From: a virus
DNA length: 64,000 nucleotides
Virus record (IMG/VR): IMGVR_UViG_3300048014_000057
Location: 62,001 to 126,000 of that record
Strand: one strand, 5' to 3'
The position numbers and the translations under genes are program-made. Below, one piece after another: positions 3,437 through 52,152 of the stretch. The notes below the pieces were generated by a model. That model saw only the letters and a program-made list of their open reading frames with translations, searched no databases and was not told the origin of the DNA. How positions within the stretch are numbered: position 1 is the first letter of the stretch; every line of letters begins with the position of its first letter.

Positions 3437-4463
3437 TTTGCATGGCCTCTTTATAAATTTCTTCGGTAAGTAATTGTAACTCAGCTTTATATTGAGTGTC
3501 AATAGTAGAAATTTGTTTTTTAAAAATTTCTAAAGTAGATTCAATATTTTGAACAACTTCAGGATTTACAATATCAATTTTTTCTTGTATATCATTAACT
3601 AAAAGATCAATCACTCCAAGATTATGAATTGAATCAATAAAATTTTTAAATTTAGTTTCTGATTTTTTAGAAATAACGTTTACTTTAACATAAGAATTTT
3701 TAGTATTTAAAATGTCTATTTCTTTATCTTCTTCATAATCGATTTTAACAAACATCTTATATGGATTTCTATGGTAATCCAATATTCCAGTATCAGTATC
3801 CAAAATACAAAAACCAGAATCATTGGTATAATCCCCCCAATTGAATTGAAAGCAAGAACCAATGTAATTAATATTGTTGTTATGATTACGAGTGTGATAA
3901 TGGCCGGATAAAACTTTATCAAACCTTTCAAAAATTTTTGGATCATCTCCATGAGTTGATATAATTCCTTTCTGTGTTTCAAAGCCTTTTAATTCCAAAT
4001 GTGCCATACAATATCGTGCCTGTGATTTTTCTATCACCTTTAATGATTCTTCTCTGTTTTCTTGAGAAATCCAAGGAAGGAAAAGAATATTTCCTATTTC
4101 TTGAGGATTATTATATAAGTTAATATTATATTTACCTTCTATTAATTCTTTTAAGGAATTAATATCATTAGTTTGACGATGAAAAACATCATGATTACCA
4201 CAAATAATATCTGCTTTTAATCCATTTTTAATTCGATATGAAAGTGGTTCAAAAAAATCTTCTCTTAATTTTTTTGCAGTTTGTATATTAATTTGTCTTC
4301 GATTATCAACAAGATCACCAAGATGTATAAAATGTTTAATATTATTTTTATCAATATATGGAAATACTACTTCTGAAAAAAAATTATGCATATAGGGATA
4401 AAATGCCTGTGAATCATTTCTACAACCCCAATGTGTATCTGCAATAATTAATATTTTACTCAA
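3429..4463 (-). CDS. 47: Recombination endonuclease subunit gp47 (SbcD/Mre11-like)
   Basis: Metallophosphoesterase nuclease that pairs with gp46. Metal-binding motifs are in order: DTHWG (9-13), GDLVDNR, GNHD, and GHYH near residue 190. At 344 residues it is close to T4 gp47. The start is a TTG at 4463, directly abutting the stop of the upstream membrane peptide (TAA then TTG), which suggests coupled translation. The end overlaps the next small gene by 8 bases. The identification rests on family motifs and gene order with 46. Confidence 0.95.
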   Translation of the reverse strand: MSKILIIADTHWGCRNDSQAFYPYMHNFFSEVVFPYIDKNNIKHFIHLGDLVDNRRQINIQTAKKLREDFFEPLSYRIKNGLKADIICGNHDVFHRQTNDINSLKELIEGKYNINLYNNPQEIGNILFLPWISQENREESLKVIEKSQARYCMAHLELKGFETQKGIISTHGDDPKIFERFDKVLSGHYHTRNHNNNINYIGSCFQFNWGDYTNDSGFCILDTDTGILDYHRNPYKMFVKIDYEEDKEIDILNTKNSYVKVNVISKKSETKFKNFIDSIHNLGVIDLLVNDIQEKIDIVNPEVVQNIESTLEIFKKQISTIDTQYKAELQLLTEEIYKEAMQNE

Positions 4464-18937: not shown

Positions 18938-18992
18938 TTTTTCTTCTTTTTTAATAAATAATATAAATTATTTCTCATATTTATTGGAAAAA

Positions 18993-21929
18993 ATGGCAGA
19001 AGAAACAAAAACATCAACATTTCGACAGATATTAGCAGAACACGGCTCACAAATATTTGCAACAGCATTTCCAGGAGCTTCTAAATTATTAGAAATTGGT
19101 TCTCAATATATAAATTCTGGTGGTGATACTAGAGAAAAAGAAGAAAGGGAAATTTCTAGAGAAAGAGAAAAACAATCTCGTTCTAGTGCCGCAACTTCAA
19201 AACTCGCGACTATTATGGATGAAGGTTTTAATAAAATTGATGATAGATTAAATATGACTAATATTGTTTTAAATCAATCCAAAGAATTACAAATTATAAA
19301 TAATAAATTACTTGAAAAATTTCTTGAAAATGTTGGTTATGGTGGTGGATTTGGTGGTGGATTTGGTGGTGGATTTGGTGGTGGATTCGGGGGAATGGGT
19401 TTTGGTGGTGGATTTGGTGGAAATAATCTTCTTAGTAATCCTGCTGTAGATATTGGAATATGGGAAATAGGAAAAAAACTTCTAGGAAAATCAGGTGAAT
19501 TTTTAAAAAATTTATCAAGATTTTTAGGTCCTTTAGGTATAGCTGCTGAAATTATGGACCCTTCTCCTACAGGAATTGGTAAAGGAGAAGATATAGATTC
19601 TATAAAAAAAAATATGGAAAGAAATCAAAGAAAACTTTTTGGTGATCTTGATTTTGATAAAAATTCAGATGACGGTTCTTTAGAACAAAAAAGACAATTA
19701 GAAATAAAAGCAAAAGAAGATGCCTTAAAATTAACTATTGATAATTTAAATAATACAATTCTTATATTAAAAGATACAATAGAAAAAACCAAAAATAGTG
19801 GAGGAAATACTGATTCTCTTCAATTACAATTAAAACAAAATGAAAATACATTATCTCAATTAAATAAATCTTATAATGATCTAGAATCTTCTAAAAATAC
19901 ACCTTTAAAAAATTCTACTATTGAAGAAATAAAACCTAATTCTTTTAATAATCCAAATATACCTCCTGTTCTTTCAAATGGTAGAAGTATATTTGGTACT
20001 GCAACTCCTTCACCAACTTATCCCTCCGATCCAAATAATTTAGGAATTCCTCATTTTGGTCCGCCCGGTTATCGTAGTAATGCTCCCATTGTAAGAAATA
20101 GTGGATCAAGATTAGAAAGACATGCTGGTGGACAACCAACTATTGAAAATGAAAATTCTAAAACACCAGAATTAAATGGTGAAGATGTAGTTAAACATCT
20201 AGAAAAAATGAGAGATGCAGGATTTATCACTAATGAAGAATGTGTTACTTTAGGAATGGCTGCTGCTGGTATAAAATATGGAAGTGGAACGCCAGGATCA
20301 TTTACTACACAATGGAAAAAAGGTGGTACGGATTATGAAAAAATGGCTAATGGTTCTGTTGCTGCATCATTTTTAAATGTTGATGGAAGTCCTGCTAATA
20401 TATATGGTGGACCACAAGGAGGTAGACATGCAAAAGATGTAGAGGCTATGAATGGTGGTCAAGGAGGAACTGATCATGTTATTGTTAAAAAATCAAATCA
20501 TTATGATAAAGATGGAAAATTTGATGGTTGGAATGCTATAGAACAATATAGAGGACAACCTATGCATGAAAGATTTATGCCTTTAAATGGTGGTTTTGGT
20601 GAAAATTCTTTAAAGAATTATAATGAAGTATTAGGACCAGATGGTGAAGTTTTAGGTGGTCGTAAAAATTTTGATTATGCTCGTCTACATCCTAATCAAA
20701 ATTCTAATATTTCTGGTGATTATTCAAATGATGCAAGGCATAATGCAGAAACTTATTTGGGAAGAAAAATGTCAGATGATGAATATGATCAATTAATTAG
20801 AGCAACAAGTGCTGAAGCAGGGGGCGGAATAAAAGGAAAAGGTGATACTACAGAACAAGCTATGATTATGGCTTCCATTCTTAATAGAGCTAAAAAATTG
20901 GGACCTGATGGTGTAATTACAGCTTTACATGCCCGTAATCAATTTCAATCTGTTACAGGAAGAGATGGACGTACACCTTCTCCTAATTTTATTAATGGAC
21001 CAAGTGATACAAGAAAATTTAATATTGAAGAAGCTGCTGCCAAAAAATTACCATTTATATCAACAGAACAATTAAATTTTACTGCTGCATCTGATGCCGC
21101 ATATGGCCCAGGAAAAAATATAAGTTATAGAGATAAAATGTTAGCTGATGGTGGAAGTGTAATTGGGGGTTCTGTTTTTAACACATCACCACCAAATGAA
21201 TTTCCTGAAATAAAAAATTCTAATTCTAAAGCTGATCTTGCTTTTGGAGATTCTACCGTTCATGGTTTAGGACTTCCTGGGGATTCAAAAGATAAAAGAC
21301 ATACACGAGATAGTAAAGCAGCACTTGAAGAATATTTAAAAACTAATAGTGTAGAAGGAAAAAATGTTGTTATTTCTGGTGTATCTAATAATGCCGATGA
21401 AAATGGATTTAAAGATGTAAAAGATATGGCTAATATTTTAAAAAAAGCTGGTGCTCATGTTAATATTCTTGGAGAAGGAAAAAGAGCCGATCTTGCTAAA
21501 TGGAATCCTGAATTAGAAAAATTTGCCAAAGATAATGGTATGTTATTCACACCAATGATAGATAATCAAAGACCAGATAATGTACATCCGGCCAATTATA
21601 AAGAACAATTAACAGAAATAAATAAAAAATTTACAGAAACAAATAAGAATCAACTTTCAGCAACACAAATATCAGCACAACAAAAACAACAAATGTTATT
21701 TCATACTCAACAAAATATGGATGCTGCACGAATTTCCAAGGCTGCAATCGAAAGAAGTACAAAATCAGGATTTACACCAAATGTTAATACTTTATATGAT
21801 GGAAATAAAGAAAAATCTTTTTTTGAAAGAAATCCTGCCAAAGAAAAGAAAGAAGTTGGTGATCCAAAAGCTGCTTCTACAAGAGTGAGTCAATTATTTA
21901 CTGGATATGGTGGCATAGGACATAATTAG
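18993..21929 (+). CDS. Large virion-associated lysin with cysteine-peptidase-like, SleB-like and SGNH domains
   Basis: 978 residues from ATG 18993 (GGA upstream). In order: a helical N-terminus; a low-complexity GGGFGG repeat (about 112-146); a coiled coil (about 225-290); a proline-rich linker; a region with EECVTLG (414) and GTDHVIV (491) that may be an NlpC/P60- or CHAP-like peptidase; a SleB-type cell-wall hydrolase domain (IRATSAEAGGG near 602, ASILNRA, NQFQSVTGRDG near 649); and an SGNH esterase domain (FGDSTVHG near 748, GVSNNADENG, DNVHP near 861). It probably rides in the tail or hub and opens the cell wall during entry. Confidence 0.7.
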   Translation: MAEETKTSTFRQILAEHGSQIFATAFPGASKLLEIGSQYINSGGDTREKEEREISREREKQSRSSAATSKLATIMDEGFNKIDDRLNMTNIVLNQSKELQIINNKLLEKFLENVGYGGGFGGGFGGGFGGGFGGMGFGGGFGGNNLLSNPAVDIGIWEIGKKLLGKSGEFLKNLSRFLGPLGIAAEIMDPSPTGIGKGEDIDSIKKNMERNQRKLFGDLDFDKNSDDGSLEQKRQLEIKAKEDALKLTIDNLNNTILILKDTIEKTKNSGGNTDSLQLQLKQNENTLSQLNKSYNDLESSKNTPLKNSTIEEIKPNSFNNPNIPPVLSNGRSIFGTATPSPTYPSDPNNLGIPHFGPPGYRSNAPIVRNSGSRLERHAGGQPTIENENSKTPELNGEDVVKHLEKMRDAGFITNEECVTLGMAAAGIKYGSGTPGSFTTQWKKGGTDYEKMANGSVAASFLNVDGSPANIYGGPQGGRHAKDVEAMNGGQGGTDHVIVKKSNHYDKDGKFDGWNAIEQYRGQPMHERFMPLNGGFGENSLKNYNEVLGPDGEVLGGRKNFDYARLHPNQNSNISGDYSNDARHNAETYLGRKMSDDEYDQLIRATSAEAGGGIKGKGDTTEQAMIMASILNRAKKLGPDGVITALHARNQFQSVTGRDGRTPSPNFINGPSDTRKFNIEEAAAKKLPFISTEQLNFTAASDAAYGPGKNISYRDKMLADGGSVIGGSVFNTSPPNEFPEIKNSNSKADLAFGDSTVHGLGLPGDSKDKRHTRDSKAALEEYLKTNSVEGKNVVISGVSNNADENGFKDVKDMANILKKAGAHVNILGEGKRADLAKWNPELEKFAKDNGMLFTPMIDNQRPDNVHPANYKEQLTEINKKFTETNKNQLSATQISAQQKQQMLFHTQQNMDAARISKAAIERSTKSGFTPNVNTLYDGNKEKSFFERNPAKEKKEVGDPKAASTRVSQLFTGYGGIGHN

Positions 21930-22580: not shown

Positions 22581-22713
22581 ATGGAAAAAGATAACAGTAT
22601 TCATGCATCAATCCATCATTCCGATAGAGATATTGGAAAAGAAAAGGAAAAAGATAACAGTATTCATACATCAATCCATCATTCCGATAGAGATATTGGA
22701 AAAGAAAAGGAAA
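22581..22713 (+). repeat. 63-bp direct tandem repeat
   Basis: Two copies of a 63-base unit beginning AAAAAGATAACAGTATTCAT that differ at very few positions. It keeps the reading frame and lengthens the protein by 21 residues. Too few copies and no spacers, so not a CRISPR. Confidence 0.75.
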
Positions 22714-22766
22714 AAGTATCAAAATTGTCGGATAAAATTAAAAAAGTTCTTAAACCAAAATCATAA
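22581..22766 (+). CDS. Small repeat protein with IHASIH motif
   Basis: 61 residues made of two near-identical 21-residue units (DNSIHASIHHSDRDIGKEKEK), encoded by a 63-base tandem duplication, plus a basic tail. A related IHASIHPND motif begins the unrelated small protein at 57168. AAGGGAAAA precedes the ATG. Function unknown. Its end overlaps the convergent gp26 frameshift extension by six bases. Confidence 0.5.
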   Translation: MEKDNSIHASIHHSDRDIGKEKEKDNSIHTSIHHSDRDIGKEKEKVSKLSDKIKKVLKPKS

Positions 22767-22946
22767 AGGATTATTTCTTCTATTGGCTTCTTCAATTTCT
22801 TTATTAATTTTATTAACCATTTGAATGTAAATTGTGCGTTCAAATGGTATCATATTTTCTAATTCTTCAAGAGAATATCCATGATGATGTTGTAGAGAAA
22901 AATTTGTAGAATAATAAGAAGATAGATTATTATGTATTAAAGATAT
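22761..22946 (-). CDS. gp26 frameshift extension (gp51-like)
   Basis: A 61-residue frame that lacks a proper start codon and lies in the -1 frame directly after the slippery site of gp26. It reads ISLIHNNLSSYYSTNFSLQ, then HHHGYSLEELENMIPFERTIYIQM and a charged tail. It resembles short proteins I recall downstream of gp26 in T4-like marine phages. Made as a gp26 fusion of about 293 residues, it would mirror the G/GT tail-assembly chaperone pairs of lambda-like phages. Confidence 0.65.
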   Translation of the reverse strand: MSLIHNNLSSYYSTNFSLQHHHGYSLEELENMIPFERTIYIQMVNKINKEIEEANRRNNPL

Positions 22947-23641
22947 AAAAAAAAATCCATAAGAGAATTAAAAGTAAGACTTCTTATAGTACCTAATTTA
23001 TTAGTATATTGAACCGTATATTTGACGGAAGGAGTCGAAAGAAGAAATTCTTCTATTTTTCTAAAGGTTTTAATATCTAAATTATCCATGAATTCTCTTT
23101 TTTCGTCCATTGTTAATTCTAATAATTCATCTTTATTGTAAATATTTTCAATACATCTAACAACTAATTCAAACAAACCATCCTTTTTAAGTCTTGCCTG
23201 AAAATCATCAGAATCATAAATAGAGGCTTCTGGATATTTCATTACAATAGTAATATTATTATCTACTTTAATGTTATTATCTGGGGGATTGTCTTGAAAA
23301 TTAACTTTAATATCATCAAAATTAATTTTTAAAGAATATTTTTCTTTATCCTGATCGTCCTGAATCTCTATTGTTTCTATTGAATTTACTGATTTTGATC
23401 TTAGTTGTAAAAATAGATATTCAAGATCAAACATAGGAATAGAGTTAATATTAAAATCTGGTTCTTGACAACAAACCTTAACAACATCTTTAATGGCTTT
23501 AAAAATATCATTAATATTTTTAGATTCTTTGGCAAATAAAAGAATTTTTTCTTCTTTAACGAGAAATCGACGAAAATATAAATCTTTTTTATTAGAAGGT
23601 TGATTAATTAAAAATGTTGGGTAAATTAATTGTGGTATTAT
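22937..23641 (-). CDS. 26: Baseplate hub/tail-assembly protein gp26
   Basis: The first ATG (23434) would leave out a conserved N-terminus. From the ATA at 23641, preceded by AGGAG with an eight-base spacer, the protein reads IIPQLIYPTFLINQPS, then RRFLVKEEKILLFAKESKN and FDLEYLFLQLRSKSV, which follows T4 gp26 from its first residue. Later come IVMKYPEAS and a FNSLMDFF end. 234 residues (T4 gp26 208). It overlaps a -1 frame extension. The start codon AUA is inferred from homology and Shine-Dalgarno spacing. Confidence 0.8.
   Translation of the reverse strand: MIPQLIYPTFLINQPSNKKDLYFRRFLVKEEKILLFAKESKNINDIFKAIKDVVKVCCQEPDFNINSIPMFDLEYLFLQLRSKSVNSIETIEIQDDQDKEKYSLKINFDDIKVNFQDNPPDNNIKVDNNITIVMKYPEASIYDSDDFQARLKKDGLFELVVRCIENIYNKDELLELTMDEKREFMDNLDIKTFRKIEEFLLSTPSVKYTVQYTNKLGTIRSLTFNSLMDFFLYL
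22946..22952 (-). promoter_or_regulatory. -1 programmed frameshift site U UUU UUA
   Basis: In the gp26 frame, a run of nine T reads GAT TTT TTT TTA, giving the classic heptamer T TTT TTA in the correct phase. gp26 stops three codons later, while the -1 frame stays open for 61 codons with protein-like sequence. Confidence 0.7.
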
Positions 23642-23652
23642 TTTAAAATCTC

Positions 23653-24273
23653 CTAATTCTGAAATTCTACTGCAAATTCTCTATAAGTAAATGTAATATC
23701 TAATTTTAAAAGATTATCAGTTTTATCCCATGATAAAGGAGTTTCTGAAAATAATATTGGTTTGGCTCTATAGGCATTGACGATTTTAATCAGATTTCCC
23801 GAAAGGTCATATGTATTTATATTTATTACCTGAGAACAAATATCATCTTCATAGGCGGAAGTATAATTTGGAACAGAATAATTTAAAGCTCCATTTTGTG
23901 TGGTTTGAGAATTATTATATATTTCTGCAAAATTATATATGGAATTTATCCATTCATAAAAAAACTGATATATTAATCCATATTTATCTGTTAGAAATGA
24001 CATTTCCAAATTACCAAATACAGCATTATAAGGTTGTTTAATTATTGGACCCATACCATATCTTCTTGATTCTGTAGATTGTAATCCTATTGCAGGCGAT
24101 GTAACACTTTGGGCTCGCATTTGTAGAATTTGCGGTAATCCTGCTAAATTTCCATTGGTTATAGTTTGATTGCCTAAAATATTAGGAAGTGAAATTAAAA
24201 TATCAAATTTATTAGAAGAAGAATATCCATAAGTTTTTAAATTTGAAAGAAACTGATTTACATCAAAAGCCAT
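23653..24273 (-). CDS. Tail-tube-like baseplate protein
   Basis: 206 residues beginning MAFDVNQFLSNLKTYGYSSSNKFDILISLP. The segments MRAQSVTSPAIGLQSTESRRYG, FGNLEMSFLTDKYGLIYQFFYEWIN and a final LDITFTYREFAVEF follow the gp19/gp54 tail-tube fold pattern. Beside gp26, a baseplate tube-initiator or hub role is likely. The exact T4 equivalent is not resolved. Confidence 0.65.
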   Translation of the reverse strand: MAFDVNQFLSNLKTYGYSSSNKFDILISLPNILGNQTITNGNLAGLPQILQMRAQSVTSPAIGLQSTESRRYGMGPIIKQPYNAVFGNLEMSFLTDKYGLIYQFFYEWINSIYNFAEIYNNSQTTQNGALNYSVPNYTSAYEDDICSQVININTYDLSGNLIKIVNAYRAKPILFSETPLSWDKTDNLLKLDITFTYREFAVEFQN

Positions 24274-51876: not shown

Positions 51877-52152
51877 ATGTCATATAATCCGTTACCTGAT
51901 TATAGAAGTGTTGTAGAAAAATGGGGTTCATGTCATATAGAAATTTATGATGATTTATTAAGAAATATATTAACTTGGGAAGATTTGTTAGTAGAAAATT
52001 GTTCATGGACAGGAGAAATTAATTGTAATAATAAAATATATTATTGTGAAATTAAATCACCTAAATTATCACCAGGATATCACGGAGTAATGAATATTGT
52101 TATTGATTGGGAAGAATTATATTATTATTTAAAAAAAAATTTAGACACATAA
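51877..52152 (+). CDS. Hypothetical protein, 91 aa
   Basis: Acidic, Trp-rich, starts one base after the Nudix stop. No motif recognised. Confidence 0.5.
   Translation: MSYNPLPDYRSVVEKWGSCHIEIYDDLLRNILTWEDLLVENCSWTGEINCNNKIYYCEIKSPKLSPGYHGVMNIVIDWEELYYYLKKNLDT

What the first reader, a model, noticed from the sequence alone, without database searches (positions are those of the whole stretch)
22761..23641. gp26 with a U UUU UUA site and a -1 frame extension
A canonical -1 slippery heptamer sits in phase three codons before the gp26 stop. The -1 frame lacks any start but encodes 61 residues of ordered, gp51-like protein. The arrangement parallels the G/GT frameshift of tail-assembly chaperones in lambda-like phages. 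I do not know of a report for a T4-type gp26.
Basis: partly seen in the sequence, partly recalled or inferred. Interest (0 to 1): 0.82.

Follow-up and report, generated by a model that had tools for sequence, protein, structure and literature searches.

The report
Frameshifted tail chaperone in T4-like phage
This T4-like phage gene carries a run of nine Ts just before its stop that lets some product continue into a second reading frame, giving a short and a long tail-building helper protein; the trick is already published for T4-like phages, but this small lineage has dropped the usual helper signals.

Summary
gp26 (PF12322, 2.8e-44) on the minus strand ends ATG GAT TTT TTT TTA TAT CTT TAA. 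The -1 frame encodes 61 residues homologous to gp51 (PHROG_634, 1e-21), with no usual start codon before mid-domain.

It is not chance. In 105 of 106 non-redundant relatives gp26 ends with an in-phase T TTT TTN, and in all but one of those the gp51 domain follows in the -1 frame. Elsewhere in the same genes, 0 of 87 Phe-Phe pairs form that heptamer.

Best reading: gp26 is the short tail-assembly chaperone (TAC-N, like lambda gpG) and the gp26-51 fusion is the long form (like gpGT). T4 reaches the same pair by gene duplication: its gp51 is a complete gp26-like domain plus the tail. Genomes with the frameshift have one PF12322 gene; T4-type genomes have two.

What may be new is local. Most relatives carry an SD-like stimulator upstream or a stem downstream. 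The window's clade has neither, only a conserved T9 run, which raises transcriptional slippage as an alternative. No frameshift product has been measured.

The parts
22937..23641 (-). gp26 / TAC-N, 234 codons from an ATA start at 23641 to TAA
   Evidence: PF12322 E 2.8e-44, PHROG_150 7e-44; N-terminus aligns with relatives' MIPK(I/V)xYP; AlphaFold2 mean pLDDT 93.5
23650..23654 (-). AGGAG, likely ribosome-binding site of gp26, 8 nt before the ATA codon
   Evidence: sequence
22946..22952 (-). slippery heptamer T TTT TTA in phase with gp26
   Evidence: sequence; T TTT TTN in 105 of 106 non-redundant relatives
22947..22955 (-). nine-T tract overlapping the heptamer; the only coding-strand T>=9 in the window's ORFs; conserved in the window's clade
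22937..22939 (-). gp26 stop codon TAA, third codon after TTA
   Evidence: sequence
22761..22946 (-). -1 frame extension of 61 codons plus TGA; gp51-like TAC-C domain; fused product would be 293 residues
   Evidence: PHROG_634 1e-21; purifying selection in the -1 frame across relatives; aligned with relatives from the Phe-Phe of the slippery site
23653..24273 (-). upstream neighbour, tail-tube-like protein (PHROG_45), same strand

Best explanation
gp26 and its -1 extension are the tail-assembly chaperone locus of a T4-like phage. Most translation ends at the TAA at 22937-22939 and gives the short chaperone (TAC-N = gp26, 234 residues). A minority continues in the -1 frame after slipping at T TTT TTA and gives a fusion of about 293 residues (TAC-NC = gp26-gp51). 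By analogy with lambda gpG and gpGT, the shared part would coat the tape-measure protein and the extension would recruit the tail-tube protein, the ratio being set by how often the slip happens. Shown here: the anatomy, the homology, the conservation of heptamer and frame, and selection on the -1 frame. Inferred: that the fusion is made, its ratio, and its binding partners. Whether the shift is made by the ribosome or by RNA polymerase on the T9 run is not settled for this clade; I favour the ribosome, because the heptamer is kept in relatives whose run is only T6 or T7.
For: In-phase T TTT TTN 1-9 codons before the gp26 stop in 105 of 106 non-redundant relatives. The codon holding the first T always ends in T although its amino acid varies (D, S, N, F, A, R): 65.4 of 105 expected, log10 P about -22.6 from codon usage, taking sequences as independent. 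0 of 87 other Phe-Phe pairs in the same genes have it. gp51 homology begins at the Phe-Phe coded by the slippery site. No ATG, GTG or TTG before codon 9 of the extension in 38 of 105, the window included. Differences between relatives in the -1 frame fall 28/13/59% on codon positions 1/2/3. Relatives carry known kinds of stimulator: an SD-like site peaking about 6-9 nt upstream and a downstream stem with both-sided changes in 6 of 9 pairs. T4 gp51 is a natural fusion: PF12322 over residues 1-201 plus a tail homologous to the extension, hhalign E 5.9e-7. The window's own record and all 19 records of its one-gene kind that were checked have one PF12322 gene, whereas the T4-type records have two.
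Against: No expression data. The window itself lacks both an SD-like stimulator and a downstream stem (fold z about +0.7). In the window the next gene downstream is on the other strand and no tape-measure gene was identified. Foldseek finds no significant solved structure; the HK97 tail assembly chaperone 2ob9 has the highest probability of the listed hits (0.44) but E 2.2. The P values ignore shared ancestry.
Confidence: 0.88

Rival explanations
1. The long form is made by transcriptional slippage: RNA polymerase adds one U on the T9 tract, and normal translation of that mRNA reads through into gp51.
For: The window's clade (four non-redundant members, 100/100 support) has T9 and lacks both stimulators found in relatives. 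The clade lies inside the T7 group, where 23 of 30 have a strong downstream fold. A run of nine As or Ts slips efficiently in bacteria (PMC5009743).
Against: The heptamer phase is kept exactly, and relatives with T6-T7 must use another mechanism. A T9 run can also help a ribosome slip. Both may act together.
Confidence: 0.3
2. gp51 is translated on its own, by reinitiation or from a non-canonical start, and there is no fusion.
For: About half of the relatives have an ATG, GTG or TTG within five codons of the slip site, some as TGATG overlapping the gp26 stop; annotators call separate gp51 genes. gp26 itself seems to start at ATA.
Against: 38 of 105 have no such start before codon 9; the conserved block begins upstream of the early starts; the SD-like site lies before the heptamer, too far for initiation at the gp51 ATGs; the heptamer would be unexplained; T4 encodes the fusion as one protein.
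Confidence: 0.06
3. Sequencing or assembly error in the homopolymer; the true gene is a single in-frame fusion (T10).
For: Nine-base homopolymers are error-prone.
Against: The same frame relation holds in the T9-clade contigs from several metagenomes and in over 100 relatives with T6-T8.
Confidence: 0.02

Closest known systems
[quoted passage not shown] paper not held, seen through PMC10885494 and PMC12846349)
   Same: Poly-T -1 frameshift signals in TAC-N genes of T4-like phages; short plus long chaperone. From memory, the abstract names T4 genes 26 and 51.
   Different: Whether that study covers the window's lineage, the three cis arrangements or the T9 clade could not be checked.
Phage lambda G/GT
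   Same: Two overlapping ORFs, in-phase slippery heptamer near the end of the first, long form extended in the -1 frame.
   Different: No sequence similarity shown here; different slippery sequence; product and ratio measured in lambda, not here.
Phage T4 gp26 and gp51
   Same: gp26 is the same Pfam family; gp51 has the same family domain plus the same tail.
   Different: T4 encodes the two forms as separate divergent genes, and its gp26 end (GAG TTC TTT GAG) has no slippery run.

Membership tests
Frameshifted tail-assembly chaperones (lambda G/GT type) | Short ORF overlapped by a second ORF in the -1 frame | tested here: met
Frameshifted tail-assembly chaperones (lambda G/GT type) | Slippery site in phase just before the first stop, conserved in relatives | tested here: met
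   105 of 106; 0 of 87 control Phe-Phe pairs
Frameshifted tail-assembly chaperones (lambda G/GT type) | Second ORF has no start of its own | tested here: met
   window: first usual start in mid-domain; not universal in relatives
Frameshifted tail-assembly chaperones (lambda G/GT type) | Stimulatory element near the slip site (common, but not a defining requirement in every known case) | tested here: not met
   absent in the window's clade, present in most relatives
Frameshifted tail-assembly chaperones (lambda G/GT type) | Lies just upstream of the tape-measure gene | tested here: inconclusive
   near it in Cr30 and phiM12; in the window the next gene is on the other strand and no tape-measure gene was identified
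Frameshifted tail-assembly chaperones (lambda G/GT type) | Chaperone fold | tested here: inconclusive
   HK97 chaperone 2ob9: probability 0.44, TM 0.48 to target, E 2.2
Frameshifted tail-assembly chaperones (lambda G/GT type) | Minor fusion product made, binds tape measure and tube, absent from virion | not testable with these tools
   needs experiments
T4 gp26/gp51 family (PF12322) | PF12322 domain above cut-off | tested here: met
   151.9 bits against a cut-off of 24.5

The most novel reading that the evidence does not exclude
Within T4-like phages the window's clade has changed how the long chaperone is made. It descends from phages with T7 plus a downstream stem, lost the stem, and now relies on a conserved T9 tract, so the short-to-long ratio is set mainly by RNA polymerase slippage (or by stimulator-free ribosomal slippage). 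This would be a switch of recoding mechanism at an orthologous site, beside the third solution, gene duplication, in T4.
Probability: 0.35. Interest if true: 0.55.

Novelty: new member of a known kind. Interest (0 to 1): 0.36.

Why it matters
It shows that the frameshifted tail chaperone is widespread outside T4's own group, that hundreds of 'gp51' annotations are probably C-terminal halves of a fusion, and that T4's textbook hub proteins gp26 and gp51 are best read as the short and long tail chaperones. The local contrast between T6 + SD-like site, T7 + stem and bare T9 offers a natural series for testing how a protein ratio is kept while the recoding signal changes.

Tried and rejected
In-frame fusion hidden by a homopolymer error: rejected, same frame relation in over 100 relatives. 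Independent gp51 start in the window: rejected, no usual start before mid-domain. A second full-length gp51 elsewhere in the genome, as in T4: none in the 144,859-base record, which may be incomplete. Downstream RNA structure in the window: none. RNAalifold gave no consensus for the T7 group; a stem named from individual folds was then counted and supported, so its paired percentage is partly by construction, while the slid controls and both-sided changes are more telling. Foldseek on the extension gave nothing. Scans with Cr30 and Mendera gp26 added few relatives. The 2022 Virology paper is not held. An A9 run at 52131-52139 near an ORF end showed no long overlapping extension.

Full report
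OBSERVATION. The minus strand of 22761-23641 was read and translated. gp26 ends ATG GAT TTT TTT TTA TAT CTT TAA; T TTT TTA is in phase and overlaps a nine-T run. The -1 frame continues for 61 codons. gp26 belongs to PF12322 (2.8e-44) and PHROG_150; the extension matches PHROG_634, the gp51 'hub assembly catalyst' family (1e-21), and the C-terminal end of PHROG_150. The record is a 144,859-base IMG/VR virus sequence. It holds one PF12322 gene and one PHROG_634 match.

CHANCE. In-phase T TTT TTN occurs 34 times in 17,957 codons of the window, so the motif alone is cheap; only gp26 among 77 ORFs has it within nine codons of its stop. The test that matters is conservation. Loci were collected from IMG/VR with the window's gp26, an alignment of the family, and Cr30 and Mendera gp26, plus thirteen named phage records with a single gp26. 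T4 gp51 was searched separately. Of 177 gp26 ends, 106 are non-redundant at 80% identity; 105 have the in-phase heptamer (56 TTTTTTC, 43 TTTTTTT, 4 TTTTTTA, 2 TTTTTTG; the exception is Vibrio phage VAP7), and the gp51 domain is in the -1 frame in all of these but S-SCSM1 (the script's short motif missed 12 of them, which I read by eye in its output). The codon carrying the first T always ends in T while its amino acid changes (D 39, S 45, N 13, F 4, A 3, R 1); 65.4 were expected. The next codon is always TTT against 65% usage. None of 87 other Phe-Phe pairs in these genes has the heptamer. These P values treat sequences as independent, which they are not; the control and the divergence (down to about 25% identity) carry the argument. 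Eleven of twelve loci from bacterial genome bins show the same.

THE -1 FRAME IS A PROTEIN. Between relatives, differences fall 28/13/59% on positions 1/2/3 of the -1 frame, like gp26 in its own frame (27/18/55%). The alignment starts at the Phe-Phe coded by the slippery site. The predicted extension is all helical (mean pLDDT 75.9).

NOT A SEPARATE GENE. In 38 of 105 relatives, the window included, no ATG, GTG or TTG occurs before codon 9 of the extension. In the window the first is in mid-domain. Others do have an early start, sometimes overlapping the gp26 stop, so reinitiation may add to the product there.

CIS SIGNALS. Across relatives a site able to pair with the anti-Shine-Dalgarno sequence peaks 6-9 nt before the heptamer (mean -4.7 kcal/mol; 51 of 105 at -5 or lower), far weaker at other distances. 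The 70 nt downstream fold better against shuffles (mean z -2.0; 46 of 105 below -2) than two control stretches (-0.1, -0.5). Sorted by run length: T6 (58) mostly have the SD-like site (42 of 58); T7 (30) mostly lack it and have the downstream fold (23 of 30); T8 (13) are mixed; T9 (4) have neither. The T7 stem GCUGAGYCA/UGGCUCAGC is kept in 87% of cells, with both-sided changes in 6 of 9 pairs and 23 cells against 4-7 cells when slid. A gp26 tree puts the four T9 members together (100/100) inside a well-supported, mostly T7 group (99/98), next to L097, which has T7 and a strong stem. So the window's lineage most simply lost the stem and lengthened the run. That order is inferred from the tree.

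T4. T4 gp51 (249 aa) is PF12322 over residues 1-201 (3.9e-52) and its tail aligns with the extension profile (hhalign E 5.9e-7). T4 gp26 is PF12322 alone and its end has no slippery run. A survey found one PF12322 gene in each of 19 records without T4-type gp51 and two in T4 and its seven relatives, counting as one each the two genes that appear in pieces; the window's own record has one. A review lists both T4 proteins as hub assembly chaperones, with gp51 absent from the particle (PMC3004832).

PRIOR ART. A 2016 review says G-T frameshifting is conserved in long-tailed phages 'except T4' (PMC5009743). [quoted passage not shown] I could not read it. PMC10885494 reports from it that some T4-like phages carry a short gene and a fused longer gene; PMC12846349 reports that poly-T frameshift signals are known in TAC-N genes of T4-like phages. 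The finding is therefore a new member of a published class. The sorting of cis signals and the T9 clade are my own results; no held paper was found that reports them, but the key paper is not held.

MECHANISM. Ribosomal -1 slippage is the simplest account for the family. For the T9 clade, RNA polymerase slippage is a real alternative, since nine As or Ts slip efficiently in bacteria (PMC5009743), and the two may act together. The confidence of 0.88 is for a recoded gp26-51 chaperone fusion by either route; 0.3 is the share given to polymerase slippage as the main route.

Noticed in passing
23639-23641 (-): gp26 appears to start at ATA, 8 nt after AGGAG, where close relatives have ATG; a real non-canonical start or a base error.
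   Followed up: partly
L093 (Synechococcus phage S-SCSM1, MK867354.2) 3680-3960: The heptamer is present but the gp51 domain lies in the +1/-2 frame and the -1 frame closes within ten codons; a -2 shift, an indel or a sequencing error.
   Followed up: partly
L092 (Vibrio phage VAP7, Ackermannviridae) 3700-3914: The only relative without T TTT TTN: gp26 ends CAC GTT TTT CGC TAATG, with an ATG for gp51 overlapping the stop and a single PF12322 gene; may use another signal or reinitiation.
   Followed up: no
22581-22766 (+): Small ORF whose protein is largely two near-identical copies of about 22 residues (KDNSIHASIHHSDRDIGKEKE), convergent with gp26-51.
   Followed up: no
18984-21929 (+): 981-residue ORF with a glycine-rich stretch and almost no family match; near the place where relatives have a large tail or lysozyme protein, but on the opposite strand to gp26.
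   Followed up: partly
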